Part shown: positions 30,068-52,564 of the stretch, one piece after another
Numbering within the stretch: the stretch's first letter is position 1
Layout: each line of letters begins with the position of its first letter
Source of the DNA: Xanthobacteraceae bacterium 501b
GTDB taxonomy: Bacteria > Pseudomonadota > Alphaproteobacteria > Rhizobiales > Xanthobacteraceae
DNA: 64,000 nt
Direction of reading: 5' to 3'
Assembly: GCA_000378025.1 (NCBI GenBank)
Contig: KB899087.1
Coordinates: forward strand, 4,211,501 to 4,275,500
The notes under the pieces: generated by a model
The model's database searches: none
The model's input: only the letters and a program-made list of their open reading frames with translations
Told to the model about the DNA's origin: nothing
Position numbers and translations under genes: made by a program

Positions 30068-30082
30068 GCAAGCGGCGTGCCA
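30068..30082 (-). promoter_or_regulatory. Sigma-54 promoter of the flavin reductase gene
   Basis: Minus strand reads TGGCACGCCGCTTGC, a full match to the -24/-12 consensus TGGCACG-N4-TTGC, 48 bases before the ATG at 30020. It forms a divergent pair with the sigma-54 promoter at 30316. Confidence 0.8.
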
Positions 30083-30158
30083 GCCGTGCCGCGGCCGCGC
30101 GTGCCCTGCCTTTGCCGGCAAAATCTCCCGTCGCCGCCCGCCCGTCTCGCCCCGCGCT

Positions 30159-30184
30159 GCGACAGATGTCGCTGATCTGAGACG
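30159..30184. promoter_or_regulatory. Candidate activator site between divergent sigma-54 promoters
   Basis: TGTCGC-TGATCT-GAGACG (30167-30184) fits the motif TGTCKC-N6-GMGACA with one mismatch and overlaps a second palindrome GCGACA-GA-TGTCGC (30159-30172). It lies about 90 bases from the flavin reductase promoter and 140 from the aldehyde dehydrogenase promoter, usual distances for an enhancer bound by a sigma-54 activator. Confidence 0.6.
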
Positions 30185-30315
30185 GCGCTTCCCGGCCTGA
30201 CGCCGGCTGGAGAGATCGCCGCCACCGCCGGAAACCAGCGCCGGCAGGGCTTTGCCCGCCCCAGCCCGTCCGCCACCCCTCGCGCCCCGCGCGCGTCGCT
30301 GCCGCCGGCCGGCGC

Positions 30316-30330
30316 TGGCACGGGGCTTGC
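30316..30330 (+). promoter_or_regulatory. Sigma-54 promoter of the aldehyde dehydrogenase gene
   Basis: TGGCACGGGGCTTGC matches the -24/-12 consensus fully and ends 40 bases before the ATG at 30371. Confidence 0.82.
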
Positions 30331-30370
30331 GGCATCGCCCGCATCCCTGATCGTTGCCGAAAGCCCTGAC

Positions 30371-31858
30371 ATGACCCTCTCCGTGAACCCCATCGCCGAC
30401 ATCATCGCCCCGCTGCCCAAGGGGCTGCTGATCGACGGCCAGTTCGTCCCGGCGCTGTCGGGCAAGACCTTCAAGACCTTCAACCCCGCCACCGGCGAGG
30501 TGCTGGCCGAGGTCGCCGAGGGCGACGCCGGCGATATCGACCTCGCCGTCGCCGCCGCGCGCCGCGCCTTCGCCGGGCCGTGGAGCCGCTTCACCCCGTT
30601 CCAGCGCCAGCAGTGCCTGCTGCGCTTCGCCGATCTGGTGGAGAAGCACTTCGACACGCTGGCGCTGATCGACGTGCTTGATATGGGCGCGCCGATCACC
30701 GCCATGCAGGCCCGCCGCCAGCGGGCGCTCGGCCTGCCGCGCTTCTATGCCGGCATGTGCACGGTCATCAGTGGCGGCACCCTGCCCAATTCCCTGCCGG
30801 GCGAGGTGTTCACCTACACGTTGAAGGAACCGGTCGGCGTGGTCGGCGCCATCACCCCGTGGAACGCGCCGCTGACCTCGACCCTGTGGAAGATGGGCCC
30901 GGTGCTCGCCACCGGCTGCACCATGGTGCTCAAGCCCGCCGAGGACGCCCCGCTCACTGCGCTGCGGCTCGGCGAGCTGCTGCTGGAAGCCGGCGTGCCG
31001 GCCGGCGTGGTCAACATCGTGCCCGGCTTCGGCGCCACCGCCGGCGATGCGCTTGCCCGGCACGGCGATGTCGACAAGGTCGCCTTCACCGGCTCGGACC
31101 TCACCGGCCGCAAGATCGTCGAGGCCTCGAAGACCAATCTCAAGCGGGTGACGCTGGAACTGGGCGGCAAGTCGCCGGACATCATCTTCGCCGATTGCGA
31201 CATGGAGGCCGCCGTGGCCGGGGCCGCCATGGGCGTGTTCGCCAATAGCGGGCAGATCTGCGTCGCCGGAACCCGCCTGCTGGTCGAGCGCCCGATCTAT
31301 GAGGAATTTGTCGCCCGCGTCTCCGCCTTTGCCCGCGCGCTCAAGGTCGGCAACGGGCTCGATCCGGCGACGCAGATCGGCCCGATCGTCAACGCACGGC
31401 AGCTGGAGCGCATCACCTCCTATATGGAGATCGGCCTGGGTGAGGGCGTCACCGCCGCCGCCGGCGGCAAGCGCCTCACCGAGGGCGCGCTGAAGGACGG
31501 CTATTTCTTCGAGCCGACGGTGCTCTCAGGCGTCACCAACGCCATGCGGATCGCCCAGGAGGAGATCTTCGGGCCGGTCGCCGCCGCCATCCCCTTCGAC
31601 ACGCCGGAGGAGGCCGCCGCCCTTGCCAATGACACGCCCTTCGGCCTCGGCGGCGGGGTGTGGACCACCAACCTGTCCACCGCCCACCGCATGGCGAAGG
31701 CGATCCGCGCCGGCACGGTCTGGGTCAACACCTATGGCGGGCTCGATCCCGTGGTGCCGTTCGGCGGCTACAAGACCAGCGGCTATGGCCGCGAATCCGG
31801 CACCGAGCACCTCGACGCCTATCTCGAGACCAAATCCGTGGTGATGAAGCTGGCCTGA
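30371..31858 (+). CDS. NAD(P)-dependent aldehyde dehydrogenase
   Basis: 495 residues, full ALDH superfamily length. It oxidises an aldehyde to the acid. Cofactor segment TPWNAPLTSTLWKMGPVLATG, FTGSDLTGRKI, catalytic Glu in LELGGKSPD (near residue 263) and catalytic Cys in NSGQICVAGTRLL (near 297) are all present, as is the EEIFGPV motif. It resembles broad betaine/amino-aldehyde dehydrogenases. Transcription from its sigma-54 promoter links it to the AcoR-like regulator, so it may oxidise an aldehyde released by the LLM, RidA or DadA-like enzymes of the same region (inference). Confidence 0.92.
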   Translation: MTLSVNPIADIIAPLPKGLLIDGQFVPALSGKTFKTFNPATGEVLAEVAEGDAGDIDLAVAAARRAFAGPWSRFTPFQRQQCLLRFADLVEKHFDTLALIDVLDMGAPITAMQARRQRALGLPRFYAGMCTVISGGTLPNSLPGEVFTYTLKEPVGVVGAITPWNAPLTSTLWKMGPVLATGCTMVLKPAEDAPLTALRLGELLLEAGVPAGVVNIVPGFGATAGDALARHGDVDKVAFTGSDLTGRKIVEASKTNLKRVTLELGGKSPDIIFADCDMEAAVAGAAMGVFANSGQICVAGTRLLVERPIYEEFVARVSAFARALKVGNGLDPATQIGPIVNARQLERITSYMEIGLGEGVTAAAGGKRLTEGALKDGYFFEPTVLSGVTNAMRIAQEEIFGPVAAAIPFDTPEEAAALANDTPFGLGGGVWTTNLSTAHRMAKAIRAGTVWVNTYGGLDPVVPFGGYKTSGYGRESGTEHLDAYLETKSVVMKLA

Positions 31859-31865
31859 GGCCAAA

Positions 31866-31883: not shown

Positions 31884-31888
31884 CGGCT

Positions 31889-33277: not shown

Positions 33278-33357
33278 GTCTCAGCCCCGCTGTCTCGCGC
33301 GAGATGTCTCACGCCGGCTGTCTCAGCCGCGCGCCGGTCTCACCGCCGGCCCGTCTC
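33278..33357. promoter_or_regulatory. Cluster of GTCTCA half-sites between divergent sigma-54 promoters
   Basis: Within 80 bases there are six GTCTC half-sites on the plus strand, five of them GTCTCA, for example TGTCTCA at 33305-33311 and 33320-33326, plus a TCTCGCGCGAGA palindrome at 33293-33304. No complete TGTCKC-N6-GMGACA site is seen here. The cluster is about 100 bases from each of the two divergent promoters, so it could serve both. Confidence 0.5.
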
Positions 33358-33444: not shown

Positions 33445-33459
33445 TGGCACACCCCTTGC
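33445..33459 (+). promoter_or_regulatory. Sigma-54 promoter of the ridA-like gene
   Basis: TGGCACACCCCTTGC matches the -24/-12 consensus with invariant GG and GC correctly spaced; it lies 61 bases before the ATG at 33521. Confidence 0.78.
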
Positions 33460-34066: not shown

Positions 34067-34106
34067 TTTCTCACGCCTGAGACGTTGCTGTCTCAGCTTT
34101 GAGAAA
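34067..34106. promoter_or_regulatory. Two tandem activator-type inverted repeats, centres 22 bp apart
   Basis: TTTCTC-ACGCCT-GAGACG (34067-34084) and TGTCTC-AGCTTT-GAGAAA (34089-34106) both contain TCTCA-N4-TGAGA. The 22-base period places the two copies on the same helix face. They lie about 190-230 bases before the DadA-like gene. Confidence 0.6.
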
Positions 34107-34140
34107 AGACCGAAGTCTATTTTCCATCTATACTTAAAAC

Positions 34141-35598: not shown

Positions 35599-35616
35599 TT
35601 TCTCCGCAATGAGACA
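35599..35616. promoter_or_regulatory. Activator-type inverted repeat upstream of the LLM gene
   Basis: TTTCTC-CGCAAT-GAGACA fits TGTCKC-N6-GMGACA with one mismatch in the left arm and lies about 70 bases from the sigma-54 promoter at 35679. Confidence 0.55.
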
Positions 35617-35678: not shown

Positions 35679-35693
35679 TGGCACGGGCCTTGC
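35679..35693 (+). promoter_or_regulatory. Sigma-54 promoter of the LLM monooxygenase operon
   Basis: TGGCACGGGCCTTGC is a full -24/-12 match, 50 bases before the GTG start at 35744. It rules out the longer ATG-like starts upstream, which would lie before or inside the promoter. Confidence 0.82.
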
Positions 35694-35743: not shown

Positions 35744-36868
35744 GTGCTGCTTTCCTTCTTCATGATGCCGCTTCATTCGGTCAACAGGCATTATCCCACT
35801 GCCCTGGCCGAGGATATCGAGGCCTTCAAGCTGGCGGACGAGCTGGGCTTCGAGGAAGCGTGGATCGGCGAGCACTATTCGGCGGAGATCGAGCAGATTT
35901 CCTCGCCGCTGATGTTCCTGGCGCATATGGCGCCGCAGACCAAGCGCATCAAGCTCGGCACCGGCGTGCTGCCGCTGCCGCTCTATCATCCTGTGATGGC
36001 CGCCTCGCATGTCGCGCTGCTGGACCATCTCGCGCCCGGCCGCCTCTTGCTGGGCATCGGCACTGGCGGCCTCGGCTCGGATTTCGAGGTGTTCGGCATG
36101 GAGGACGCGGATCGCACCGCGATGATGCTCGATTCCATCGCCATCATGAAGAAGATCTGGGCCTCCGATCCGCCCTATGACATCGAGGGCAGGTTCTGGA
36201 ACGTGAAGCTCTCCAAGAGCTACTGGCCGGACCTTGGCGTCGGCATCCTGCCGAAGACCCTAACCAAGCCGCACCCGCCGCTGGCGGTGTCGGTGTCGAG
36301 CCCCTATTCCGGCTCCATGCGCGTCGCCGCGCGCAACGACTTCATGCCGATCTCGGCCAATTTCGTCGCCTCCTGGGTGGTGAAGACCCATTGGGAAACC
36401 TATTGCGATGAACTCGCCAAGCTCGGCAAGACGCCGGACGGTACCAAGTGGCGCGTCGCCCGCTCCATCCATGTCGCCGACACCGACGAGGAAGCCGAGC
36501 GCGTGGTGAAGAAGGCCGGCGGCGCCTATGACTGGTACTACGACTACATGTTCCAGGTGTATCAGCGCATGGGCGCGGCGGCGCTGCTCGCCCCCTTCCG
36601 CGACACCGATCCCGCCAGCATCACGCCGCAGATGGTGCGCGACCATTTCGTCATCTATGGCAGCCCGGAAACGGTGGCGCGCAAGATCCTCGCCTTGCGC
36701 GAGGAGGTCGGCCCGTTCGGCACGCTGATGATGACCTCGCATGAATGGGAGGACAAACCCGCCATGCGCCGCTCGATGGAACTGCTTGCCAGGCGGGTGA
36801 TGCCCATCGTCAATGCGGCGCTGGGCGAAGAAGCACTGGACGAGAACCTGCCGGCGATCGCCGTCTGA
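35744..36868 (+). CDS. LLM-class flavin-dependent monooxygenase
   Basis: 374 residues from GTG 35744, chosen because AAGGGAG lies six bases upstream and a sigma-54 promoter sits just before it. Bacterial luciferase-like (LLM) fold: LLSFFMMPLHSVNRHYPTAL, ADELGFEEAWIGEHY, IKLGTGVLPLPLYHP and GRLLLGIGTGGLGSDFEVFG. It uses reduced FMN and O2 to oxygenate an organic substrate; relatives include limonene monooxygenase, RutA and nitrilotriacetate/EDTA monooxygenases. The flavin reductase at 29.5 kb is the probable partner. It is followed after 19 bases by a lactone-oxidase-like flavoprotein in the same operon. Confidence 0.9.
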   Translation: MLLSFFMMPLHSVNRHYPTALAEDIEAFKLADELGFEEAWIGEHYSAEIEQISSPLMFLAHMAPQTKRIKLGTGVLPLPLYHPVMAASHVALLDHLAPGRLLLGIGTGGLGSDFEVFGMEDADRTAMMLDSIAIMKKIWASDPPYDIEGRFWNVKLSKSYWPDLGVGILPKTLTKPHPPLAVSVSSPYSGSMRVAARNDFMPISANFVASWVVKTHWETYCDELAKLGKTPDGTKWRVARSIHVADTDEEAERVVKKAGGAYDWYYDYMFQVYQRMGAAALLAPFRDTDPASITPQMVRDHFVIYGSPETVARKILALREEVGPFGTLMMTSHEWEDKPAMRRSMELLARRVMPIVNAALGEEALDENLPAIAV

Positions 36869-36887: not shown

Positions 36888-38156
36888 ATGTCGAGCGCCG
36901 ACACGGCCGGGCTGCTGCAGCCCGGAAAGCTCTGGTGGAACTGGTTTGGCGAGCAGTATTTCGTGCCGCGCTACACCGCCCGTCCGACCCGCGAGGAGGA
37001 GGTCTGCGCCATCGTGCGCGAGGCGCGCAGGCTCGGCCTGCCGGTCCGCGCCAGCGGTGCCGGCCATTCCAACCCCGCCATCGTGCCCACCCCGGGGGTG
37101 CATATCGACTTCGACGCCTTCAATCAGGTGGTCGCGGTCGACAAGGAGAAGCTGCAGGTCACGGTGCGGCCGGGCCTGCGCATCAGCGCGCTGACCAAAT
37201 ACCTGCGCGAGCGCGGCATGTCGCTCAACAACCAGGGCGACATTGACCGGCAGGCGGTGATCGGCGCGATGATGACTGGCACCCATGGCGCCGGCAAGAC
37301 GCTGGCCTGCCTCTCCACCCACCTCGTCAGCGCCCGCATCGTTACCGCGGAGGGCGAGCTGCGCGACCTCTCGGCGGCCGATGGCGAGCTGTTCAAGGCG
37401 TTCCGCACCTCCATCGGCATGTTCGGCCTGGTGGTGTCGCTCACCCTGCAGGCGGTGCCGTCCTACAACATCCACAAACGCTCATGGAACACCGACACCG
37501 AGGACTGCCTTAGTAACCTACATGAGCTTTTGGAGGCCAACCGCACCTTCTGGTTCTTCTGGCTGCCGCGCAAGGAATCGGCCGATCTCTATGAGCTGCC
37601 CGGCGGCGCTGTGCCCTCGAAGACGACGCGCGACTTCGATTTCTGCCACATGCGGACCTATAACGCCGTGCCGGTGGCCGAGCCGGCGCCGACGCTGGGG
37701 CCGGGGGAGGAGTTCGACCATTCCTCCATCATCTACCCCAACGACTATGTGCCCAACTTCCGCGAGATCGAATACGCCGTGCCGTTCGGCCGCTTCGAGG
37801 AGTGTTTCGCCGAAGTGCGGCACATGTTCCAGACGAAGTACCCGCAGGCCATCTACCCCGTCGAATGCCGGGCGGTGAAGGGCGACGACACCTATCTCTC
37901 CGCCTATTCCGAGCGCGACGGCTATGCGCTGTCCATTTCCGGCCCGCTGGAGGAGGCGAGCTGGGCCATGCTGCGCGACGCCGATGCCATTCTCGACCGC
38001 TATGACGGGCGTCCGCATTGGGGCAAGCACCATTTCATGACGCCGGAGCGGCTGGAGCGGCTCTACCCGAAATACGACGCCTTCAAGCGCCTGCGCCGGG
38101 AGATGGACCCCGACGGGGTGTTCCTCAACGACCATCTGCGCATGCTGTTCGCCTGA
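36888..38156 (+). CDS. FAD-linked oxidase, D-arabinono-1,4-lactone oxidase-like
   Basis: 422 residues from ATG 36888 (GGAGAG upstream). The N-terminal PCMH-type FAD domain (about 20-190) has YTARPTREEEVCAIV, ASGAGHSNPAIVPT and a TGTHGAGKTLACLS FAD-binding segment. The C-terminal ALO-type substrate domain (about 200-420) ends DPDGVFLNDHLRMLF. Relatives oxidise sugar lactones or alditols with O2 or a carrier. His in the covalent-FAD position cannot be judged by eye. It is co-transcribed with the LLM monooxygenase, which suggests it oxidises a product of that enzyme (inference), and is followed by a strong terminator. Confidence 0.87.
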   Translation: MSSADTAGLLQPGKLWWNWFGEQYFVPRYTARPTREEEVCAIVREARRLGLPVRASGAGHSNPAIVPTPGVHIDFDAFNQVVAVDKEKLQVTVRPGLRISALTKYLRERGMSLNNQGDIDRQAVIGAMMTGTHGAGKTLACLSTHLVSARIVTAEGELRDLSAADGELFKAFRTSIGMFGLVVSLTLQAVPSYNIHKRSWNTDTEDCLSNLHELLEANRTFWFFWLPRKESADLYELPGGAVPSKTTRDFDFCHMRTYNAVPVAEPAPTLGPGEEFDHSSIIYPNDYVPNFREIEYAVPFGRFEECFAEVRHMFQTKYPQAIYPVECRAVKGDDTYLSAYSERDGYALSISGPLEEASWAMLRDADAILDRYDGRPHWGKHHFMTPERLERLYPKYDAFKRLRREMDPDGVFLNDHLRMLFA

Positions 38157-38160
38157 ACGA

Positions 38161-38187
38161 AGGGGCCGGCACTGCTGGCCCCTTTTT
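38161..38187 (+). terminator. Rho-independent terminator after the LLM operon
   Basis: AGGGGCC/GGCCCCT stem (seven pairs, nine-base loop) is followed by TTTT, directly after the stop of the lactone-oxidase-like gene. It separates the LLM operon from the regulator gene. Confidence 0.88.
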
Positions 38188-38217: not shown

Positions 38218-38247
38218 TTGACGATTAAACTTTGTGCTGCGCACAAT
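38218..38247 (+). promoter_or_regulatory. Candidate sigma-70 promoter and operator of the AcoR-like regulator
   Basis: TTGACG (38218-38223) and CACAAT (38242-38247) with 18-base spacing form a plausible promoter. The perfect inverted repeat TTGTGC-TGC-GCACAA (38232-38246) overlaps the -10. It differs from the TGTCKC-N6-GMGACA motif, so a different protein may bind here. Confidence 0.45.
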
Positions 38248-38277: not shown

Positions 38278-40347
<2,070 letters not shown>

Positions 40348-40384: not shown

Positions 40385-40402
40385 TGTCGCGCCTCTGCGA
40401 CA
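40385..40402. promoter_or_regulatory. Perfect activator-type inverted repeat upstream of the polyamine-type ABC operon
   Basis: TGTCGC-GCCTCT-GCGACA is a perfect match to TGTCKC-N6-GMGACA, extended by C and G on the outside. It lies about 210 bases before the sigma-54 promoter at 40610. Confidence 0.7.
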
Positions 40403-40445
40403 GCGGCCGGCTCATCCTTGAAACAGCGTCGCCGTCGCGCGATCC

Positions 40446-40609: not shown

Positions 40610-40624
40610 TGGCACGAGAGTTGC
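40610..40624 (+). promoter_or_regulatory. Sigma-54 promoter of the first polyamine-type ABC operon
   Basis: TGGCACGAGAGTTGC is a full -24/-12 match, 43 bases before the ATG at 40668. Confidence 0.83.
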
Positions 40625-40667: not shown

Positions 40668-41771
40668 ATGACCTTCCATACTGGAGATTGGGCGCCCTCG
40701 CGGCGCGGCGTCCTGAAGGGCATGGGCGCGGCCGCCGCCACGCTCGCCGCCCCCGGCGTTCTCAGCCGGGCCTATGCGCAGGAGCCGATCGTGCTGCTGA
40801 CCTGGGAGACCTATCACGACCCCGCCTGGTGCAAGGAATGGGGCGAGGCCAATGGCGTCGAGGTGAAGCCGGTCGTCATCGGCTCGGTCGACGAGCTGTT
40901 CTCGCAGCCCTTCTCCGGCGCGGTGCAGCCGGACGTGATGTATATCGAAACCGGCTCACTGCCGCGCTTCAAGGAAGCCGGGCTGATCGTGCCGTTCGAC
41001 ACCGCCAAGGTGCCGAACATCAAGAACATCACCCCCAATCTCGACTGGAAGAAATACACCGATGTCGGCGGCGAGGTGGTCGCCGTGCCCTACAACTGGG
41101 GCACCCAGCCGCTGATGTACAATGCCGACGCCATGCCCGCGCCGGACAGCTGGAAGGCGCTGTGGGACCCGAAATATCGCGGCAAGGTCAACATCTTCGA
41201 CGATTGCACCATCTGCTTTCCGATGATCGCGCTCGCGGTTGGCGCCAAGGACCCGTTCAACCTGACCGACGCCGATTTCGCCGCCTGCGAGGAGGCGCTG
41301 CGCACGCTGCGGCCGCAGATCCGCACCATCGCCCGCGGCTTCGACGATGCCGTCACCATCTATGCCGCCGGCGAGGCGCTGCTCGGCTATTGCCAGAACA
41401 TCGCGGTCGTCACCTCGCTGCAGGACAAGGGCAAGAACTTCGCCTATGCGCTGCCGAAGGAAGGCACGCCCACCTGGATCGACTGCACCGGCGTCTCGAA
41501 GAAGGGCGACCGCGACATCGTCTACAAGTTCATCAACGACAATCTCTCCACCAAGTGGCAGGCGCGCTTCATCGAGGCCTCGACCAATAATGGCGTGCTG
41601 GATCTCAGCGAGGCCAAGGCCGGCGGCGTGAGCGAAGCGACGCTCAAGCGCACCAACATTCCCGATTCGCAGGCCGGCGATTTCTGGGAAAAGCTGGTCA
41701 TCCTGCAGAAGCCGGAAGATTTCGAGCGGCGGCTGCAGATCTGGAACGACTTCAAGGCCGGCACGCTCTGA
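40668..41771 (+). CDS. ABC transporter substrate-binding protein, PotD/PotF-like, Tat signal
   Basis: 367 residues from ATG 40668, with AGGGGA upstream; the sigma-54 promoter excludes the longer frame. A twin-arginine signal (SRRGVLKGMGAAAATLA) ends near AYAQE, so the protein is probably exported folded. The mature part resembles spermidine/putrescine-binding PotD: LLTWETYHDPAWCKEWGE, DVMYIETGSLPRFKEAGLIVPF and VVAVPYNWGTQPLMYN. The ligand may be a polyamine or another cationic or amide compound. It is first in an operon with ATPase and fused permease genes under AcoR-type control. Confidence 0.88.
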   Translation: MTFHTGDWAPSRRGVLKGMGAAAATLAAPGVLSRAYAQEPIVLLTWETYHDPAWCKEWGEANGVEVKPVVIGSVDELFSQPFSGAVQPDVMYIETGSLPRFKEAGLIVPFDTAKVPNIKNITPNLDWKKYTDVGGEVVAVPYNWGTQPLMYNADAMPAPDSWKALWDPKYRGKVNIFDDCTICFPMIALAVGAKDPFNLTDADFAACEEALRTLRPQIRTIARGFDDAVTIYAAGEALLGYCQNIAVVTSLQDKGKNFAYALPKEGTPTWIDCTGVSKKGDRDIVYKFINDNLSTKWQARFIEASTNNGVLDLSEAKAGGVSEATLKRTNIPDSQAGDFWEKLVILQKPEDFERRLQIWNDFKAGTL

Positions 41772-41808
41772 CGCGCACCTGCTGACCCCGCAACGCGGAG
41801 CACGAGAG

Positions 41809-42900
41809 ATGGCGAAGACTTCGCAGGCGATCCTGACGCTCGCCGGCATCGACAAGACCTATGACGGGGCGGCCCGGCCGGCGCTCGACCGGATTTCCTT
41901 CACCGTGGCGCCGGGCGAGTTCTTCTCCATCCTCGGGCCGAGCGGCTCGGGAAAAACCACGCTGCTGCGCATGATCGCCGGCTTTGAGCGCCCCGATATC
42001 GGGCGCGTGCTGATGGACGGGGCCGACATCACCGATGTGCCGCCCTTCCGGCGCGATGTGCGCACCGTGTTCCAGTCCTATGCGCTGTTCCCGCATATGA
42101 GCGTGCTGGAAAACGTCGCCTATCCCCTGCGCATGGCCGGGGCGCGAAAGGCCGAGCGCCTTGCCAAGGCGCGCGACTGCCTTGCCCTCGTCAGCATGGG
42201 CGATTTCACTACCCGGCTGCCGCACCAGCTCTCCGGCGGCCAGCGCCAGCGGGTGGCGCTGGCCCGCGCCATTGTCTGCCGTCCGCGCGTGCTGCTGCTC
42301 GACGAGCCGCTGGGCGCGCTCGACCTGCGCCTGCGCCAGCAGATGCAGCACATGCTGGTTTCTCTGCAGCGCGAGCTCGGCATCGCCTTTGTCTATGTCA
42401 CCCACGACCAGGGCGAGGCGCTGTCCATGTCCGACCGGGTGGCTGTGATGAGCGAGGGGCGCATTGCCCAGCTCGGCACGCCGCGCGAGATCTATTTCGA
42501 CCCGGCCTCCGAATTCGTCGCCCAGTTCGTCGGCCGTTCCAATTTGCTGCCGATCGAGGCGGCGCCGCATGAGGGCAGCCTCACCGCCCTGCTCGGCGGG
42601 CGGGCGCTGAAGGGGGTAATGGTGCCGCGCTCCGGCCCGGCGCGGATGGCGATCCGGTTTGAATGCGTGCGGCTCGCCGATGCCGGCACCCCCGCGGGCC
42701 ATCCCGCCGACGAGGCCTGCGCCATCGAGGGCGTGGTCGAGGACGTGCTGTTCCTCGGCAATGCGCTGGAGGTGAATGTGCGCTGCGGCGACCACAACAT
42801 CATCGCCGCCGTGCCCACTCTGGGCGGCGAGGGCTATCGTCCCGGCCGCCCGGTGCGGGTGATGTTCGACCCCGGCCAGGCAACGGTGTTCCATGGCTGA
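41809..42900 (+). CDS. ABC transporter ATP-binding protein, PotA-like
   Basis: 363 residues. Walker [16 protein letters not shown]-loop [16 protein letters not shown], signature [15 protein letters not shown], Walker [13 protein letters not shown] and the H-loop YVTHDQ are all intact. A C-terminal TOBE-type region (about 270-363) follows. It powers import through the fused permease encoded next, whose start overlaps this stop by eight bases. The gene begins 37 bases after the binding protein gene. Confidence 0.93.
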   Translation: MAKTSQAILTLAGIDKTYDGAARPALDRISFTVAPGEFFSILGPSGSGKTTLLRMIAGFERPDIGRVLMDGADITDVPPFRRDVRTVFQSYALFPHMSVLENVAYPLRMAGARKAERLAKARDCLALVSMGDFTTRLPHQLSGGQRQRVALARAIVCRPRVLLLDEPLGALDLRLRQQMQHMLVSLQRELGIAFVYVTHDQGEALSMSDRVAVMSEGRIAQLGTPREIYFDPASEFVAQFVGRSNLLPIEAAPHEGSLTALLGGRALKGVMVPRSGPARMAIRFECVRLADAGTPAGHPADEACAIEGVVEDVLFLGNALEVNVRCGDHNIIAAVPTLGGEGYRPGRPVRVMFDPGQATVFHG

Positions 42901-44623
42901 TCTCGCCTCCGACATGTCGCTTGCCCCCGCCCGCCCCGTGCGCTTCCACCGGATCAGCGTGCTCGGCTGGCCGGTCTATGCCTGGTTCATCGCCCTCGTG
43001 CTGGTGCCGAACCTGCTGCTGATCGGCACCAGCTTCCTGCGCACCTCCAACGGCTTCATCGTCTTCGACCCTTCCTTTGCCAGCTATCTGAGGCTTTGGA
43101 AGTCGGCGAGCTTCCAGTTCCTGCTGGTGAAGACCCTGGCCACCAGCTTCGGCGCGGCCGCCCTCGGCTGCCTCATCGCCTATCCCATGGCTTATTACGC
43201 CGCCCGCGTGGTGCAGAAGAACCGCTCGGTGCTGGTGCTGCTGGTCATCATCCCGCTGTGGATCAGCCTGTTGATGCGGGTCTTCGCCTGGCGGATGATT
43301 CTGGGCCAGAACGGCATATTGAACTCGGCGCTGGTCGGCAGCGGCCTGCTCGACCAGCCGAGCGAGGCGTTTCTCTATACCGGCTTCTCGGTGCTGCTCA
43401 CCTACACCTACATCTCGATCCCGTTCTGCTTCATCGCCATCTTCACCGCGCTGGAGAAGATTCCGCACGCGCTGATCGAGGCCTCGCAGGACAGCGGCGC
43501 CTCCGCCTGGCAGACCTTCCGCCATGTGGTGTGGCCGCTCTCGCGGCCCAGCGTCGCCATCGGCTTTTCGCTCGCCTTCCTGATGACGGTCGGCGACTAC
43601 GTCACCCCCTCCATGGTCGGCGGCATTGATGGCACCATGATCGGCATGGTGATCGCCTCGCAGTTCGGCATCGCCAATAACTGGCCCTATGGCGCGGCGA
43701 TCGCGGTGTGCCTGATGCTCAGCGTCGGCCTCATCCTGGCGCTGGTGCTGTGGGCGGGGCAGACGCGCGGCGTGCTGACCGGCGACGAGGGCGCCCGTCC
43801 CCCGGTGGCGTCGCGCCGGCTCACCTCCGGCCAGCGCCTGCGGCGGGCGGGGGGAAGGATGCTGTTCGCGCTGCCCTATCTCTTCCTCTATGCCCCGCTC
43901 GCCATCATGGTGCTGATGTCGTTCAACGATTCCACCGTGCAGGCCTTTCCGCTCAGCGGGGCGACGCTGCGCTGGTATGCCGAGCTGGCGGGCAACCAGC
44001 CGATGCTGGAGGCGGTGCGGCGCAGCCTCATGGTCGGCTTCCTTGTCGTGCTGGTCTCGGGCGTGGCGGCGACCGGCTTCGCCTTCGCGCTGCATTATGG
44101 AAGGGTGCGGCGGGCGCGCTTCTTCGAGTTCGCGCTGGCGGTGCCGGTGGCGATTCCCGGCGTGGTGCTCGGCATCGTCATGGTGCTGGCGACGCAGCTG
44201 GCGCAGATTCCCTCCGGCGTCGGGCGCATCGTCATCGGCCAGGCGAGCTTCGTCATGCCTGTGATGCTGATGATCATCCTCGCCCGGCTGCGCCGGCTGG
44301 ACGGGGCGCTCCTGGAAGCCTCGATGGATTCGGGCGCCAATCACTGGCAGAGCTTCGTCCATGTGCTGTTCCCCTCGATCAGGGGCGCGATCATCGGCGG
44401 GGCGCTGCTCGGCTTCACTCTGTCGGCCGACGATGTGATGGTGACGCTGTTTCTCGCCGGCACCTCGCCCACCCTGCCGATCTGGGTGTGGAACCAGATG
44501 CGCTTCGGCTTCACCCCCTCGGTCAACGCCATCTTCACCTTAGTGGGCGTCGGCTCGCTGCTGGCGATCCTGGTGTGCAACCGGCTTATCTTCCACGCGA
44601 AGGCGCGCGGTCGCGAGGGCTAG
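42893..44623 (+). CDS. Fused ABC transporter permease (PotB-PotC in one chain)
   Basis: 576 residues, twice the length of a single polyamine permease. The first half (about 1-285) is PotB-like, with EAA loop LIEASQDSGASAWQTFRHVVWPL; the second half (about 315-570) is PotC-like, with EAA loop LLEASMDSGANHWQSFVHVLFPS. About 12 TM helices result, joined by a linker near 285-315 (TGDEGARPPVASRR). No stop or frameshift is seen at the junction, so this is a real fusion. It should form the whole membrane part of the importer with one PotA dimer. Elsewhere in the window (55-57 kb) the same functions are two genes. Confidence 0.9.
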   Translation: MADLASDMSLAPARPVRFHRISVLGWPVYAWFIALVLVPNLLLIGTSFLRTSNGFIVFDPSFASYLRLWKSASFQFLLVKTLATSFGAAALGCLIAYPMAYYAARVVQKNRSVLVLLVIIPLWISLLMRVFAWRMILGQNGILNSALVGSGLLDQPSEAFLYTGFSVLLTYTYISIPFCFIAIFTALEKIPHALIEASQDSGASAWQTFRHVVWPLSRPSVAIGFSLAFLMTVGDYVTPSMVGGIDGTMIGMVIASQFGIANNWPYGAAIAVCLMLSVGLILALVLWAGQTRGVLTGDEGARPPVASRRLTSGQRLRRAGGRMLFALPYLFLYAPLAIMVLMSFNDSTVQAFPLSGATLRWYAELAGNQPMLEAVRRSLMVGFLVVLVSGVAATGFAFALHYGRVRRARFFEFALAVPVAIPGVVLGIVMVLATQLAQIPSGVGRIVIGQASFVMPVMLMIILARLRRLDGALLEASMDSGANHWQSFVHVLFPSIRGAIIGGALLGFTLSADDVMVTLFLAGTSPTLPIWVWNQMRFGFTPSVNAIFTLVGVGSLLAILVCNRLIFHAKARGREG

Positions 44624-46699: not shown

Positions 46700-46768
46700 G
46701 CGGGCGGGCTGATGACGGCGCGGCGTTCCGTAATCCGCCGCCCCGTCATCGCCGGCCTGTTGTCACCA

Positions 46769-46851
46769 CGTCATCCCCGGGCTTGACCCGGGGATCCACG
46801 ACTTCTCTTTGCCGCAAAACGTGGATGCCCGGGCCAAGCCCGGGCATGACG
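46769..46851. repeat. Intergenic palindromic repeat, copy 2 (between urtA and urtB)
   Basis: Left arm 46769-46800 and right arm 46820-46851 are 32 bases each, nearly complementary, with a 19-base loop. Arms share CCCGGGCTTGACCCGGGGATCC with copy 1 at 3611. Here it lies between two genes read in the same direction, where a stable hairpin could protect or attenuate the urtA message. Confidence 0.75.
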
Positions 46852-46933
46852 GTCTTCTTAGCCCCACGACCGCCACTCCTCTTTCACCCGCCGCGCATGG
46901 CCTTCCACCGCCCTGTGCCGCCTTGAGTGCCCG

Positions 46934-48550
46934 ATGAATCTGACACGTCTCACCGTCGTTGTTGCTGGCTTGCTGGCCGCGCTGTTGGCCGCCCCCACGG
47001 CGCGGGCGCAGGGGCTCGACCGCGCCGGCCTCATCGCCAATCTGTGCGGCAATGCCGGCGCGATGGGCGAGGCGGCTGCCGTGCTCACCGGCCTCGCCAT
47101 GTCCGGCGATGCGGCCGACCGCGCCTTCGCCGTGCCGCTCGCCCGCGCGGTGATCGACCGCAAGCTCGCCTGCGACGACGCCGGCGCGGTGCTGACCGAG
47201 AGCGGTCTCGATGCTGTCACCCGCGCCCCGCGCGCGGCGGCGGGGGAGCCGCGCACCCCGGTTCTCAGCCTGAAGAACCGTGCCACCTATGAACAGGTCG
47301 ACGCGGCGCTGGCCCTGCGCGCGGCCCCCGAAGCCGCCCAGCGCGCGGCGGCGCTGAAGACGCTGGAGCGCCGCCCGGCGCTGATTCCGGAAGGGCTGCT
47401 CGACGCCGCCGCCGCCTCGGAGCCCGATGCCGGGCTGAAGGCTGACATCGAGACCCTCGCCCAGACCGCCGCGCTCACTGCCGCCGACCCGGCTGCCCGC
47501 ATAAGGGCGCTGGCGCGCATCGCCGACAATCCGAGCCGGCGCGCGCTGACGCAGGTTTCCGCCCTCACCGCCGATCCCGCCTATGCCGCCAGCCCGGAAT
47601 TCCGCGCGGCGGTGGATGAGGCCACCGCACGCATCGGGCGCGGCATCGCCGTCGGCGACGTGCTGGCGACGGCCTATAACGGGCTGAGCTTCGCCTCCAT
47701 CCTGTTCATGGCGGCGATCGGGCTGGCCATCATCTTCGGGCTGATGGGCGTCATCAATCTCGCCCAGGGCGAGCTGATCATGATCGGCGCCTATGTCACC
47801 TGGCTGGTGCAGCAGGGGCTGCGCGTCGTCGCCCCCTCGCTGCTCGACTGGTATCTGGTGCTCGCCATCCCCATCGCCTTCGTTGTGACCGCCGCCATCG
47901 GCATCGCGCTGGAAGCGAGCCTGTTGCGCCACCTCTACAAGCGCCCGCTGATGAGCCTGCTCGCCACCTGGGCGGTGAGCCTGTTTCTGATGAACCTGGT
48001 GCGCGTGGTGTTCGGCACCCAGAATCTGCAGTTCGAGACGCCGTTCTATGTCACCGGCGGCGTGCCTGTTATCGGCGACTTCATCTTCACCTGGAACCGC
48101 ATGTTCGCCATTGCCTTCGCCGTGGTGACGCTGGCGCTGACCTGGGGGCTGGTGCGGCGCACCCCGTTCGGGCTCAACATCCGCGCGGTGACGCAGAATC
48201 GCGACATGGCCGCCTGCATCGGCATCCCGACACGGCGGGTGGACATGATGGCGTTCGGCCTCGGCTCTGGGCTGGCCGGGCTGGCCGGGCTGGCGCTGTC
48301 GCCGATCTATTCGGTGAACCCGCAAATGGGCCAGAACTTCATCATCGACGCCTTCATGGTGGTGGTGCTCGGCGGGGTCGGCACCATTGCCGGCACGGTG
48401 GTGGCCGCCTTGGGCATCGGCCAGATCAATGTGCTGATCGAGCCGCTCTGGGGCGCGGTGGCGGCGAAGGTGATCGTGCTGTTGATGATCATCGCCTTCC
48501 TGCAATGGCGGCCCGAGGGCCTGTTCGCCGTGAAGGGGCGCCGCAAATGA
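46934..48550 (+). CDS. urtB: Urea/amide ABC transporter permease UrtB, with periplasmic N-terminal extension
   Basis: 538 residues. A signal peptide (LLAALLAAPTARAQG) and an Ala-rich helical extension of about 225 residues precede the LivH-type permease domain (about 235-535), as in many UrtB proteins. The domain contains GLAIIFGLMGVINLAQGELIMIGAY, the typical early signature, and FGLGSGLAGLAGLALSPIYSV near the EAA-like region. It forms the channel with UrtC, whose ATG overlaps this stop (ATGA). It lies 234 bases after urtA, with the palindromic repeat in the gap. Confidence 0.92.
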   Translation: MNLTRLTVVVAGLLAALLAAPTARAQGLDRAGLIANLCGNAGAMGEAAAVLTGLAMSGDAADRAFAVPLARAVIDRKLACDDAGAVLTESGLDAVTRAPRAAAGEPRTPVLSLKNRATYEQVDAALALRAAPEAAQRAAALKTLERRPALIPEGLLDAAAASEPDAGLKADIETLAQTAALTAADPAARIRALARIADNPSRRALTQVSALTADPAYAASPEFRAAVDEATARIGRGIAVGDVLATAYNGLSFASILFMAAIGLAIIFGLMGVINLAQGELIMIGAYVTWLVQQGLRVVAPSLLDWYLVLAIPIAFVVTAAIGIALEASLLRHLYKRPLMSLLATWAVSLFLMNLVRVVFGTQNLQFETPFYVTGGVPVIGDFIFTWNRMFAIAFAVVTLALTWGLVRRTPFGLNIRAVTQNRDMAACIGIPTRRVDMMAFGLGSGLAGLAGLALSPIYSVNPQMGQNFIIDAFMVVVLGGVGTIAGTVVAALGIGQINVLIEPLWGAVAAKVIVLLMIIAFLQWRPEGLFAVKGRRK

Positions 48551-49653
48551 ACCGCTTCGGCCGGATTACCCACACTGCACCGATCGTCCACCTCATTGCA
48601 CTCATCGTCCTCGCCGCTCTGCTCATGGCGGGACTGGCCGGAACCGAGTTCGCGCTGTCGCGCTACCTCGCCAACGCCATCGGCCAGCTCGCCGCCTTCG
48701 CCGTTCTGGCGATTTCGCTCGACCTGATCTGGGGCTATCTCGGCATCTTGTCGCTCGGCCACGGGCTGTTCTTCGCACTCGGTGGCTACCTCATGGCGAT
48801 GTATCTGCTCAAGCATTCCTTTGAAATCACCGGTACGGTGCCGGATTTCCTGCAGTTCATGGGCTGGAAGGAGTTCCCGTTTTATTGGGACGGATTCGAG
48901 TTCTTCCCCTATGCACTGGCCGCCGCCGTGGTGATAACCACGCTGATCTCCGGGCTTTTCGGCTACGTCTCCTTCCGCTCGCGGGTCGGCGGCGTGTATT
49001 TCGCCATCATCACCCAGGCGCTGGTCTATGTCGCCATGCTGCTGATGTTCCGCAACGACACCGGCTTCGGCGGCAATAATGGCATGACCGGATTCACGGT
49101 CCTGTTCGGCTGGCCAATGGGCACGTCAGGCATGATCACCGCCCTGGCCGTCGCCTCGCTGCTGGTGCTGGCGGGGGTATTGGCCGGCTGCAACTGGCTG
49201 GTGAGGAGCCGTTTCGGCGCGCTGATGCTGGCGACGCGCGACGACGAAACGCGCTTGCGAACAATGGGTTACGAGACGCTGCGGCTCAAGCTCATCGTCT
49301 GGTGCCTCTCCGCTCTCATCGCCATGCTGGCGGGCATGCTCTATGTGCCGCAGGTTGGCATCATCAATCCGCGCGTGCTCTCGCCCGAATTGTCGCTGGA
49401 AATCGCGGTGTGGGTGGCGATCGGCGGGCGCGGCCATCTGGTGGGGGCGGTGATCGGCGCGCTGCTGGTCAATGCGGTGAAGTTCTGGCTGTCCTTCGCC
49501 GCGCCTGAGATCTGGCCGTTCATCCTCTCCGGGCTGATCGTGCTGGTGGTGCTGGTCTTCCCCAACGGCTTGATGGACCTCGCGAAATTCAAGCTGGTGC
49601 GCCCGATGGGGGCGAAGCGCCTGGCCGCCGACATGGGCGAGGCGCGGCCATGA
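48547..49653 (+). CDS. urtC: Urea/amide ABC transporter permease UrtC
   Basis: 368 residues from ATG 48547, which overlaps the urtB stop. LivM-type permease with about ten TM segments; ISLDLIWGYLGILSLGHGLFFALGGYLMAMYLL is the family signature. A loop (VPDFLQFMGWKEFPFYWDGFE) typical of UrtC lies between TM3 and TM4. It pairs with UrtB. The stop overlaps the urtD start by four bases. Confidence 0.92.
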   Translation: MNRFGRITHTAPIVHLIALIVLAALLMAGLAGTEFALSRYLANAIGQLAAFAVLAISLDLIWGYLGILSLGHGLFFALGGYLMAMYLLKHSFEITGTVPDFLQFMGWKEFPFYWDGFEFFPYALAAAVVITTLISGLFGYVSFRSRVGGVYFAIITQALVYVAMLLMFRNDTGFGGNNGMTGFTVLFGWPMGTSGMITALAVASLLVLAGVLAGCNWLVRSRFGALMLATRDDETRLRTMGYETLRLKLIVWCLSALIAMLAGMLYVPQVGIINPRVLSPELSLEIAVWVAIGGRGHLVGAVIGALLVNAVKFWLSFAAPEIWPFILSGLIVLVVLVFPNGLMDLAKFKLVRPMGAKRLAADMGEARP

Positions 49654-50378
49654 GCCTGACCGCGCTTCTGGTCGACGGCCTCACCGTCCGCTTCGGCAGC
49701 TTCCGCGCCCTCGACGACCTCTCGCTCGCGATCGATTATGGCGAGGTGCGCGCCATCATCGGCCCGAACGGTGCCGGCAAGACCACGCTGCTCGACGTCA
49801 TCTCCGGCATCACCCGGCCGAAGCAGGGGCGGGTGCTGTTCGATGGCGCCATTGATCTCACGGGCCTCAGCGAAGCCGCCATCGCCCGCGCCGGCCTGCG
49901 GCGTAAGTTCCAAAAGCCGAGCGTTTTCGAGGGGTTGAGCGTGCGTCAGCATATCGCCATCGGCGCCGATGTCGGCTTCCGCGCCCGGCTCGACGCCCCC
50001 GCGCTGGAGGACCGCATTGGCGAGGTGCTGGAGACGGTGGGTCTCGTTGACCAGTCCCACCGCCTCGCCGGCGAACTCAGCCATGGCCAGAAGCAATGGC
50101 TTGAGATCGGCATGGTGCTGGCCTCCGACCCCAAGGTGCTGATGCTGGACGAGCCCGTTGCCGGCCTCACCGATGAGGAAACCGAGCGCACGGCGGCGCT
50201 GGTGCGTGCGCTCAAGCGGCCGGACCGCGCCATTGTGGTGGTCGAGCACGACATGGACTTCGTCGAGCGCATCGCCGATCGCGTCACGGTGCTGCATGAA
50301 GGCCGCACACTGTTCGAGGGCTCGATGGCCCATGTTCGCGCCGACGCGGCGGTGGTCGAGGTCTATTTGGGGCGATGA
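49650..50378 (+). CDS. urtD: Urea/amide ABC transporter ATP-binding protein UrtD
   Basis: 242 residues, LivG-type ATPase. Walker A IGPNGAGKTTLLDV, Q-loop KFQKPSVFEGLSVRQH, signature-equivalent ELSHGQKQWLEIGMVLASDP (SHGQ instead of SGGQ, usual for UrtD), Walker B VLMLDEPVAGL and H-loop VVVEHDMDFV. Starts ATGA with urtC and ends with a four-base overlap with urtE. Confidence 0.93.
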   Translation: MSLTALLVDGLTVRFGSFRALDDLSLAIDYGEVRAIIGPNGAGKTTLLDVISGITRPKQGRVLFDGAIDLTGLSEAAIARAGLRRKFQKPSVFEGLSVRQHIAIGADVGFRARLDAPALEDRIGEVLETVGLVDQSHRLAGELSHGQKQWLEIGMVLASDPKVLMLDEPVAGLTDEETERTAALVRALKRPDRAIVVVEHDMDFVERIADRVTVLHEGRTLFEGSMAHVRADAAVVEVYLGR

Positions 50379-51073
50379 GCATGCAGTTTGCCGTGGAAGG
50401 CCTCGATCAGCATTACGGCTCGGCGCAGGTGCTGCGCCACATTGGCTTCGAGATCGCGCCGGGCGAATGCCTCGCCGTGCTCGGCCGCAACGGGGCGGGG
50501 AAGTCGACGCTGCTCAAATGCCTGATGGGTCTGCTGGCCCCGAGCGGGGGGCGGGTGATGATTGACGGGGCCGATGCTTCCGGCTGGTCGCCGCACCGGC
50601 GCTCCCGCGCCGGCCTCGCCTATGTGCCGCAGGGGCGCGAGATCTTCTCCGAACTGACGGTGGGCGAGAATGTCGAGGCCGCCGCCCGCGCGCACGGCAC
50701 CTATGGCACGCCGGCGATGGACGAGGCGGTCGAGCTGTTCCCGGTGCTGCGCGAGATGTGGAAGCGGCCCGGCGGCGCGCTTTCGGGCGGGCAGCAGCAG
50801 CAGCTGGCGCTGGCCCGCGCGCTCGTCACCCAGCCCCGGCTGCTGATCCTCGACGAGCCGACGGAAGGCATCCAGCCCAACATCGTCGCCCTGATCGGCG
50901 AGGTACTGCGGGCGCTGAAGGGGCGGCTGTCGATCCTGCTGGTCGAGCAATATCTCGACTTCGCCATCGACACCGCCGACGCTTTCATCATCCTCTCGCG
51001 CGGCACGGTGGTCGAGGCCGGCCGTGCCGAGACGATGACGCGCGACCACCTCTCCCGCTTCATCGCCGTCTGA
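50375..51073 (+). CDS. urtE: Urea/amide ABC transporter ATP-binding protein UrtE
   Basis: 232 residues, LivF-type ATPase. Walker A LGRNGAGKSTLLKC, signature LSGGQQQQLALARALV, Walker B LLILDEPTEGIQPNIV (the TEGIQPNI form is typical of UrtE) and H-loop LVEQYLDFA. It forms the ATPase heterodimer with UrtD. The acetamidase/formamidase gene begins 33 bases downstream. Confidence 0.93.
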   Translation: MSMQFAVEGLDQHYGSAQVLRHIGFEIAPGECLAVLGRNGAGKSTLLKCLMGLLAPSGGRVMIDGADASGWSPHRRSRAGLAYVPQGREIFSELTVGENVEAAARAHGTYGTPAMDEAVELFPVLREMWKRPGGALSGGQQQQLALARALVTQPRLLILDEPTEGIQPNIVALIGEVLRALKGRLSILLVEQYLDFAIDTADAFIILSRGTVVEAGRAETMTRDHLSRFIAV

Positions 51074-51106
51074 ACCCCTATCCCAGCCGATTCCCAGGAG
51101 CTTCCC

Positions 51107-52042
51107 ATGTCGCGCCGCTTCGAAATCCCCGCCACGCCGGAAAACATGGTGTTGGGCTATCTCGACAGCACCACGCCCCCGGTGCTGGAGGTGGCCTCCG
51201 GCGATGTGGTGACGCTGCACTCCTTCCCCGCCGGCGGCAAGGAGACGCTGCCGGACAATTTGCCGGTTCCGGCCGACTACATGGCCGCGCTCGACGCGCT
51301 GCCGCCCGGGCCGGGGCCGCATTTCATCACCGGCCCGGTCTATGTGCAGGGCGCGCAGCCCGGCGACACGCTGCAGGTCGACATTCTCGACGTGAAGGTG
51401 CGCCAGGACTGGGGCTTCGTCTCCATCCTGCCGCTGCTCGGCACGCTGCCGGACGAGTTCACCGATTACGAGACCATCCATCCCGTGGTCGATCACGCCA
51501 AGAATGTCTGCGTGATGCCGTGGGGCACGGAAATTCCGCTCGACCCGTTCTTCGGCATCATCGCCACCGCGCCGCCGCCGGCCTGGGGCCGCTGCGGCTC
51601 GCCGGTGCCGCGCGCCTTCGGCGGCAACATGGACAATAAGGAACTGCGCGCCGGCACCACGCTGTATCTGCCTGTTTTCAACGAGGGCGCGCTGTTCTTC
51701 GCCGGCGACGGGCATGGCGTGCAGGGCGATGGCGAGGTGTGCATCACCGCGCTGGAAACCGGCGTCACCGGCACGTTCCGCCTCACCCTGCGCAAGGACA
51801 TGCGGCTCGACTGGCCCTTCGCCGAGAGCGCCACGCATCTGATGTCGATCGGCCTCGACGAGGATCTGGACGACGCCGCCAAGCAGGCGACGCGCGAAAT
51901 GGTCAAGCATGTGTGCGAGCGCACCAATCTCTCGCGCAACCAGGCCTATATGCTGTGCTCGCTGGCCGGAAACCTGCGCGTGACGCAGATGGTGGACGGC
52001 AATAAGGGCGTCCACATGCTGCTCGCCAAATCGCTGCTCTGA
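51107..52042 (+). CDS. Acetamidase/formamidase family amidohydrolase
   Basis: 311 residues, FmdA/AmdA family. It hydrolyses formamide or other short amides to ammonia and the acid. Family segments: GPVYVQGAQPGDTLQVDILDV, PFFGIIATAPP, FGGNMDNKELRAGTTLYLPVFNEGALFFAGDGHGVQGDGEV, in which Asp/His residues likely bind metal. As the last gene of the urt-like operon it should use the imported compound, pointing to amides as well as urea. A strong terminator follows. SD AGGAG lies upstream of ATG 51107. Confidence 0.9.
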   Translation: MSRRFEIPATPENMVLGYLDSTTPPVLEVASGDVVTLHSFPAGGKETLPDNLPVPADYMAALDALPPGPGPHFITGPVYVQGAQPGDTLQVDILDVKVRQDWGFVSILPLLGTLPDEFTDYETIHPVVDHAKNVCVMPWGTEIPLDPFFGIIATAPPPAWGRCGSPVPRAFGGNMDNKELRAGTTLYLPVFNEGALFFAGDGHGVQGDGEVCITALETGVTGTFRLTLRKDMRLDWPFAESATHLMSIGLDEDLDDAAKQATREMVKHVCERTNLSRNQAYMLCSLAGNLRVTQMVDGNKGVHMLLAKSLL

Positions 52043-52070
52043 GCCGCCGCCGCAAACCGCCGCCGTCGCC

Positions 52071-52110
52071 ACGGCCCGACCGCGCCTGCGGTCGGGCCGT
52101 TTGCGTTTGC
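52071..52110 (+). terminator. Rho-independent terminator of the urt-amidase operon
   Basis: A perfect 13-base stem ACGGCCCGACCGC/GCGGTCGGGCCGT with loop GCCT is followed by TTTGCGTTTGC, 28 bases after the amidase stop. Confidence 0.88.
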
Positions 52111-52549
52111 GCGTCCACCTTCTGCGATGAGCCGGGGGGCGCATCGAAATGGGTCATTCTTCCTGGCCGCCGCCGCCGGCTTAGGCGATCGTCGCGTGCA
52201 TTCAGCGGGAATGACGGTTCAAGCATGTCCCCTGGCGCATCGTCTCCGACCCTGGCGGCGGAACGCGCTTTCCGTCGAGCGCGGGGAGGTGGCTGAAATG
52301 GTGCGCCCGTGCGGTATCTTCCTGCCGAAAGCTTCCGAAACGGGCGCGCCTACTTATTGATCAGTGCCGGCGGCCGGCGCCCGCTGGTGGGCCAGACCCA
52401 CCCCGGCCCGCGCGCCGCCGTCGCCGCGCTTTCGTGCCTGCGCGCGGGGTTTGCTCTCCCGCAATAAGCCGAAATCAGAAGATCAACTCATTGAAATAAA
52501 AAGATTTTCCAAAGGTCTGGGCTGGTCGGGCGGCACGCTTGGCGCGGCT
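52111..52549. other. Intergenic region without recognisable gene
   Basis: About 440 bases between the terminator and the sigma-54 promoter. One short open frame (52127-52360) has no family likeness or SD. An AT-rich stretch (52460-52510) with an IHF-like site is the only structure I see; no TGTCKC-N6-GMGACA site was found. Confidence 0.5.
52481..52493 (+). promoter_or_regulatory. IHF-like site before the second ABC operon
   Basis: GATCAACTCATTG matches WATCAA-N4-TTR except at the first base. It is 57 bases before the -24 box at 52550, a usual place for IHF. Confidence 0.4.
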
Positions 52550-52564
52550 TGGCATGCGGTTTGC
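52550..52564 (+). promoter_or_regulatory. Sigma-54 promoter of the second polyamine-type ABC operon
   Basis: TGGCATGCGGTTTGC matches -24/-12 with one change (C to T in the -24 box) and correct GG-N10-GC spacing, 82 bases before the ATG at 52647. Confidence 0.72.

What the first reader, a model, noticed from the sequence alone, without database searches (positions are those of the whole stretch)
30068..52564. Seven sigma-54 promoters and one AcoR-type activator form a putative regulon
Full or near matches to TGGCACG-N4-TTGC occur at 30068 (-), 30316 (+), 33161 (-), 33445 (+), 35679 (+), 40610 (+) and 52550 (+), each 40-95 bases before a start codon and in the right direction. Two are divergent pairs. 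In the middle sits an activator with intact GAFTGA. Finding so many -24/-12 boxes in 23 kb, nearly all in front of catabolic or transport genes, is far above chance by eye.
Basis: partly seen in the sequence, partly recalled or inferred. Interest (0 to 1): 0.85.

Follow-up and report, generated by a model that had tools for sequence, protein, structure and literature searches.

The report
Sigma-54 regulon for a monooxygenase pathway
Six of the seven proposed switch sites in this stretch of a soil-bacterium chromosome look like conserved sigma-54 promoters with a shared activator-binding motif, so they probably turn on one unidentified nutrient-breakdown pathway together; the seventh looks real too but probably answers to something else.

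Summary
Four of the genome's ten exact TGGCACG-N4-TTGC sites lie within 10.6 kb here; 0 of 20,000 random placements gave that. In 19 of 19 close orthologous loci (Ancylobacter to Mesorhizobium and Acidisoma) a box with at most one mismatch precedes the monooxygenase gene despite rearranged gene order; more distant homologues have one in 1 of 61 and 0 of 15. It is the probable activator site. It is missing at 52550, whose box is nevertheless conserved in 3 of 3 orthologues. Conclusion: a GAF-type activator very likely drives six sigma-54 promoters for uptake and oxidation of an unknown, probably nitrogen-containing compound by a two-component flavin monooxygenase. New member of a known kind. 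No expression or binding data were available.

The parts
27604..29385 (-). allophanate hydrolase, behind the flavin reductase gene
   Evidence: NCBIfam TIGR02713 733.9 bits, cut-off 511; start inferred
29520..30020 (-). flavin reductase
   Evidence: PF01613 on its first part; start ATG read
30068..30082 (-). sigma-54 box of flavin reductase, exact
   Evidence: recurs in L061-L063 and L065, L160 and L161
30168..30183 (.). exact palindrome GTCGC-N6-GAGAC, probable activator site shared by the first divergent pair
30316..30330 (+). sigma-54 box of aldehyde dehydrogenase, exact
   Evidence: recurs in L061-L063 and L065, L160 and L161
30371..31858 (+). aldehyde dehydrogenase
   Evidence: PF00171
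31889..33067 (-). MFS transporter
   Evidence: PF07690
33161..33175 (-). sigma-54 box of MFS gene, one mismatch
   Evidence: recurs in L061-L063, L158, L161; not within one mismatch in L155, L156, L157, L159, L160
33278..33358 (.). cluster of GTCTC half-sites, with a one-mismatch palindrome at 33320-33335, between the second divergent pair
33445..33459 (+). sigma-54 box of RidA gene, one mismatch
   Evidence: recurs in L061-L063
33521..33883 (+). RidA-family protein
   Evidence: PF01042
34296..35570 (+). DAO-family (D-amino-acid-dehydrogenase-like) flavoprotein
   Evidence: PF01266; PRK00711 below its cut-off
35600..35615 (.). palindrome, one mismatch
35679..35693 (+). sigma-54 box of monooxygenase, exact
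   Evidence: box in 19 of 19 close loci
35744..36868 (+). luciferase-like (LLM) monooxygenase
   Evidence: PF00296; nearest PDB 3,6-diketocamphane 1,6-monooxygenase
36888..38156 (+). FAD-linked oxidoreductase of the sugar-lactone-oxidase family (ALO)
   Evidence: PF04030; TIGR01679 302.6 bits, cut-off 292.25
38278..40347 (+). sigma-54 activator: GAF, AAA+ with GAFTGA, HTH_8
40386..40401 (.). exact palindrome GTCGC-N6-GCGAC
   Evidence: further one-mismatch copies at 40428 and 40447
40610..40624 (+). sigma-54 box of ABC importer, exact
   Evidence: box in 17 of 17 loci with the gene
40668..44623 (+). polyamine-type ABC importer: binding protein, ATPase, double permease
52550..52564 (+). sigma-54 box of a second polyamine-type ABC operon, one mismatch; probably a different activator
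   Evidence: conserved in 3 of 3 orthologues; no palindrome

Best explanation
A catabolic island in an Ancylobacter-like alphaproteobacterium is controlled by one local sigma-54 activator. The activator has an N-terminal GAF domain and no recognisable receiver domain, so it is probably switched by a small molecule (substrate or product). It binds GTCKC-N6-GMGAC palindromes about 60-210 bp upstream of six -24/-12 promoters and opens them through its GAFTGA AAA+ domain. The promoters drive: flavin reductase plus allophanate hydrolase; aldehyde dehydrogenase; an MFS transporter; a RidA protein (perhaps reading into a DAO-family dehydrogenase); the monooxygenase plus FAD-linked oxidoreductase; and a polyamine-type ABC importer. 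Together they would import a probably nitrogen-containing compound and oxidise it with a reduced-flavin two-component monooxygenase. Shown: boxes, palindromes, their conservation, gene families. Inferred: binding, activation, co-regulation, ligand, operon extents, pathway order and substrate class.
For: Clustering of boxes. Box before the monooxygenase in 19 of 19 and before the importer in 17 of 17 close loci with rearranged gene order, against 1 of 61 and 0 of 15 more distant homologues. Palindrome exact in 20 and within one mismatch in 36 of 38 promoters against 0.2-0.8% and 6.5-7.0% of background stretches. Activator gene beside the targets with GAF, AAA+ and HTH_8; helix residues RATLYRK in the window's activator and 18 of 18 orthologues examined, not in three other activators of this genome. 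One rpoN gene. IHF-like sites enriched before the boxes.
Against: No expression or binding data. The palindrome was picked by eye on the same loci, so its counts are partly circular. L077 lacks it at both promoters (two mismatches), and in L071 and L072 the hit before the monooxygenase may be chance. For MFS and RidA it has one mismatch, and the MFS box is absent within one mismatch in 5 of the 10 loci with that gene that I scanned (L061-L063, L155-L161). The palindrome has 33 copies in the genome, fewer than its reversed control with 102. Weaker peaks appear for other spacers at one mismatch (spacer 8: 17 of 38; spacer 4: 11 of 38) and for the opposite arrangement. The window's own importer promoter has no IHF-like site.
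Confidence: 0.75

Rival explanations
1. The boxes are real sigma-54 promoters, but the palindrome is bound by, and the genes answer to, another sigma-54 activator or global nitrogen control rather than the neighbouring activator.
For: The genome has five other strong activator matches, and the gene set looks nitrogen-related.
Against: The activator gene travels with the cluster: it is found in 18 of 19 close loci, the exception being a locus cut short at the contig end (L072). Exact palindromes near a box occur in this genome only in this cluster (compared by eye), which does not suit a global regulator.
Confidence: 0.12
2. The activator controls only the core promoters (monooxygenase, importer, flavin reductase/aldehyde dehydrogenase); MFS and RidA have separate control.
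For: Palindrome only within one mismatch at those two; MFS box missing in 5 of 10 loci scanned.
Against: A dense run of GTCTC half-sites lies between the two boxes, and both boxes recur in L061-L063.
Confidence: 0.12
3. The boxes are chance matches in a 69% G+C sequence.
For: The window as a whole has no excess at up to two mismatches (28 against 33.0); genome-wide the pattern is not above its reversed control.
Against: Clustering, 19 of 19 conservation, 1 of 61 and 0 of 15 in more distant homologues.
Confidence: 0.01

Closest known systems
Local sigma-54 activator (EBP) regulons as reconstructed in Clostridiales (PMC6615313; section 6 and some passages read)
   Same: Activator gene beside its targets, Fis-type HTH, palindromic site upstream of each sigma-54 box (they report mostly 100-250 bp; here 63-208 bp in the window)
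   Different: They report 65% of activators with one operon and the rest with two to six; six promoters here is at the top of that range. Different phylum, genes and motif. Their TGT-N10-12-ACA class is similar, but the full TGT-N12-ACA holds in only 8 of 38 sites here
AcoR and DhaR, activators of acetoin and dihydroxyacetone use
   Same: GAF, sigma-54 AAA+ domain, HTH_8 order; DhaR among the top NCBIfam hits (253.3 bits)
   Different: Far below the DhaR cut-off of 551; target genes differ
Rut pyrimidine pathway (membership of RutA, RutC, RutF recalled)
   Same: Luciferase-like monooxygenase, RutF-like flavin reductase and a RidA protein together
   Different: RutC 25.5 bits against cut-off 169.1; the flavin reductase of relative L069 scores 125.9 against RutF cut-off 254.75
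3,6-diketocamphane 1,6-monooxygenase (class name type II Baeyer-Villiger monooxygenase recalled)
   Same: Closest solved relative of the monooxygenase (E 2.6e-41)
   Different: Distant; neighbours include a polyamine-type importer and allophanate hydrolase

Membership tests
Sigma-54 promoter | -24 GG and -12 GC elements of TGGCACG-N4-TTGC, correctly placed before genes and conserved | tested here: met
   conservation was not examined for every site in every locus
Sigma-54 promoter | Transcription depends on rpoN | not testable with these tools
   no expression data; one rpoN gene present
GAF-type sigma-54 activator (AcoR/DhaR-like) | GAF domain, AAA+ domain with GAFTGA, Fis-type HTH, no receiver domain | tested here: met
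   (GAF 31.3 bits, cut-off 22.4)
AcoR proper | Controls acetoin dehydrogenase genes | tested here: not met
   none among the genes identified around it; not every ORF was annotated
Activator site of the TGT-N10-12-ACA class | TGT and ACA 10-12 bases apart | tested here: inconclusive
   core GTCKC-N6-GMGAC exact in 20 of 38, but full TGT-N12-ACA in 8 of 38, all importer promoters of the window, Ancylobacter, L065 and Bosea loci
Rut pathway | RutC and RutF equivalogs | tested here: not met
   both below curated cut-offs; RutA not among the 25 of 31 families shown for the monooxygenase; the RutF test was on relative L069
Trigonelline (Tgn) pathway | Orthology of monooxygenase, reductase and dehydrogenase to TgnA, TgnB, TgnC | not tested
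   recalled lead only; two paper searches listed no paper on it

The most novel reading that the evidence does not exclude
The island is an undescribed catabolic pathway of alphaproteobacteria, built on a two-component luciferase-like monooxygenase and commanded by one GAF-type sigma-54 activator through six promoters. In sister species a second, paralogous module with its own activator, monooxygenase and importer sits inside it with two further sigma-54 boxes, making a modular sigma-54 island of eight or more promoters.
Probability: 0.4. Interest if true: 0.5.

Novelty: new member of a known kind. Interest (0 to 1): 0.4.

Why it matters
It gives a predicted binding motif and six target promoters to an uncharacterised activator, and ties together a conserved set of genes that match only generic oxidoreductase and transporter families. 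Motif and box let the regulon, and so the pathway, be traced in other alphaproteobacteria, and offer a direct way to find its substrate: screen for the compound that switches on a reporter.

Tried and rejected
Chance in G+C-rich sequence: rejected on conservation and clustering, although the raw count in the window is not above chance. Palindrome TGAGAC-N6-GTCTCA (the opposite arrangement, exact once at 34078): no excess in the window; the opposite arrangement shows only smaller peaks (spacer 3: 4 exact of 18; spacer 4: 3 exact of 20). Rut pathway: rejected on cut-offs. Trigonelline pathway: untested. Substrate from solved relatives: the importer protein is nearest to polyamine binders, the monooxygenase to diketocamphane monooxygenase, the FAD-linked oxidoreductase to galactonolactone dehydrogenase variants, the DAO protein had no PDB match at 1e-15, the activator's N-terminal part only a weak DhaR-regulator match (E 0.074); no substrate follows. 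Literature: the listings showed no paper on this cluster or motif (listings only; one search counted 265 papers and listed 15). I read section 6 of PMC6615313 and passages found by term in it and in PMC4641369; no other paper was opened. In one search the rows L032-L045 (3 of 14 with a box) are not a valid test, because the query used for them began upstream of the start codon and covers the box; I dropped them from the control. IHF-like sites: suggestive only.
Full report
Observation. The seven boxes are present at the stated coordinates: four exact (30068-, 30316+, 35679+, 40610+) and three with one mismatch (33161-, 33445+, 52550+). Each precedes a start codon by 40-93 bases (47 for the flavin reductase, whose ATG I place at 30020). 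An eighth one-mismatch match, at 59284, lies inside a DAO-family gene on the other strand (58487-60040) and was set aside. Over the whole window the pattern at two mismatches is not enriched (28 against a shuffled mean of 33.0), and over the genome the one-mismatch pattern is not above its reversed control (101 against 129). What is unusual is concentration: 4 of the 10 exact sites in 5.1 Mb lie within 10.6 kb, which 0 of 20,000 random placements reached (2 of 20,000 for a 22.5 kb width); 7 sites with at most one mismatch in 22.5 kb were reached in 2 of 5,000 (100 of 101 sites used). Of the six other exact sites in the genome, five are followed by an ORF of over 250 codons starting 18-60 bases downstream (mechanical ORFs).

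Genes. Searches give: flavin reductase with allophanate hydrolase behind it; aldehyde dehydrogenase; MFS transporter; RidA protein; DAO-family dehydrogenase; luciferase-like monooxygenase with a FAD-linked oxidoreductase behind it; the activator; a polyamine-type ABC importer; then a urea- or amino-acid-type ABC cluster (45437-51073), a formamidase-like gene (51107) and a second polyamine-type ABC operon (52647 on). The activator has a GAF domain, the sigma-54 AAA+ domain and HTH_8 and GAFTGA. The genome has one match to the sigma-54 DNA-binding domain (rpoN) and six strong matches to the activator domain, this one included.

Conservation of the boxes. One scan of genome contigs with the monooxygenase gave 80 loci (96 related stretches were found, the best 80 kept). 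The 19 closest (L061-L079, 68-97% identity) are from Ancylobacter, Bosea sp. 117, Methylopila, Hansschlegelia, Mesorhizobium, Mangrovicella, Acidisoma and others, and carry DAO, monooxygenase, ALO, aldehyde dehydrogenase, activator and importer genes in varied order (not every locus shows every gene, partly because contigs or the 10 kb flanks end). In 19 of 19 a box stands before the monooxygenase gene (12 exact, 7 with one mismatch); in 17 of 17 loci where the importer's binding protein is seen a box stands before it (16 exact, one with two mismatches, L073). The other 61 loci (27-43% identity) have a box within one mismatch in 1 case, and 15 homologues of 41-45% identity in none. The boxes before flavin reductase and aldehyde dehydrogenase recur in L061-L063, L065, L160 and L161; that before RidA in L061-L063; that before MFS in L061-L063, L158 and L161 but not in L155, L156, L157, L159 and L160.

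A shared upstream palindrome. Looking upstream of the boxes I saw TGTCKC-N6-GMGACA. Counted over the 38 monooxygenase and importer promoters of the window and the 19 loci, the core GTCKC-N6-GMGAC is exact in 20 and within one mismatch in 36; random 270-base stretches of the same loci (600 per group) give 0.2-0.8% and 6.5-7.0%. No other spacer from 0 to 15 gave more than one exact match in either group; at one mismatch, spacers 8 (17 of 38) and 4 (11 of 38) also rise above background. It holds in the window with its Ancylobacter and L065 relatives (9 exact, 18 within one mismatch, of 18) and in the other loci (11 and 18 of 20). The hits before the monooxygenase in L071 and L072 may be chance, and L077 has two mismatches at both promoters. 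In the window it is exact at 30168 (between the first divergent pair) and 40386, with one mismatch at 33320, 34090, 35600, 40428, 40447 and 52065 (only the listed intergenic stretches were scanned). At 52550 the best match in the 270 bases upstream has three mismatches. The motif was found on these data, so the counts are partly circular; the spacer control is the best guard I had. The exact palindrome occurs 33 times in the genome, fewer than its reversed control (102); comparing the lists by eye, only the two copies in this cluster lie within 300 bp of a listed box. The helix residues RATLYRK are shared by the window's activator and the 18 orthologues examined (SRATLYRK in all but L073), read RATLYRR in the five paralogues, and differ in the three other activators of this genome that I looked at. 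IHF-like sites are enriched in the 120 bases before the boxes (6 exact and 15 within one mismatch of 38; shuffled means 0.10 and 1.91; reversed control 0 and 1), but three of the six exact ones are related Mesorhizobium sequences and the window's own importer promoter has none.

The seventh site. The 52550 box is kept, inside a conserved island of a diverged region, in the three loci that have the downstream gene at over 98% identity (L141-L143, of 11 loci L141-L151 examined). It is probably a real sigma-54 promoter for another activator; which one was not tested.

A second module. The exact palindrome lies within 300 bp upstream of such a box only in L159 (in L155 about 390 bp upstream); one-mismatch copies were not scanned.

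How it probably works. A small molecule acts on the GAF domain; the activator, bound at the palindromes, loops to sigma-54 polymerase and opens six promoters. A terminator-like hairpin of 12 pairs at 38159-38185 and a weak sigma-70-like match at 38218 (neither class above chance in number) would fit a separate promoter for the activator. The importer brings in a substrate; the monooxygenase with the flavin reductase oxidises it; DAO, RidA and aldehyde dehydrogenase would deal with amine, imine and aldehyde products; allophanate hydrolase would release ammonia in those species that have it here (seen beside the cluster in the window and L061-L063). The regulatory anatomy is well supported; the chemistry is inference from families.

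Compared with what is known. Section 6 of PMC6615313 reports that fifteen groups of such activators use TGT-N10-12-ACA sites, that sites are mostly 100-250 bp upstream, that 65% control one operon and the rest two to six, and that activator genes usually sit beside their targets. This system fits that description (63-208 bp in the window, six promoters), though the full TGT-N12-ACA holds in only 8 of 38 sites. It is therefore a new member of a known kind.

Noticed in passing
L005 and L154 (own genome C1:3590668-3591748): An exact sigma-54 box stands just beyond another sigma-54 activator gene and 39 bases before a 446-codon ORF whose start looks like a secreted protein: a likely second local activator-promoter pair.
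   Followed up: no
L155-L160: A second module with its own activator, monooxygenase, importer and two sigma-54 boxes sits inside the cluster in six of eight related stretches.
   Followed up: partly
34078-34095: A perfect inverted repeat TGAGAC-N6-GTCTCA upstream of the DAO gene, overlapping a one-mismatch palindrome at 34090, with no sigma-54 box within two mismatches nearby.
   Followed up: partly
38159-38185: Terminator-like hairpin (12 pairs) between the FAD-linked oxidoreductase and the activator gene.
   Followed up: no
44640-45293: Transposase-like HTH (PF01527) on the minus strand between the importer and the urea-type ABC cluster.
   Followed up: no
45437-52042: Urea- or amide-type ABC cluster with a formamidase-like gene; relative L069 also has weak matches to both near its cluster.
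   Followed up: no
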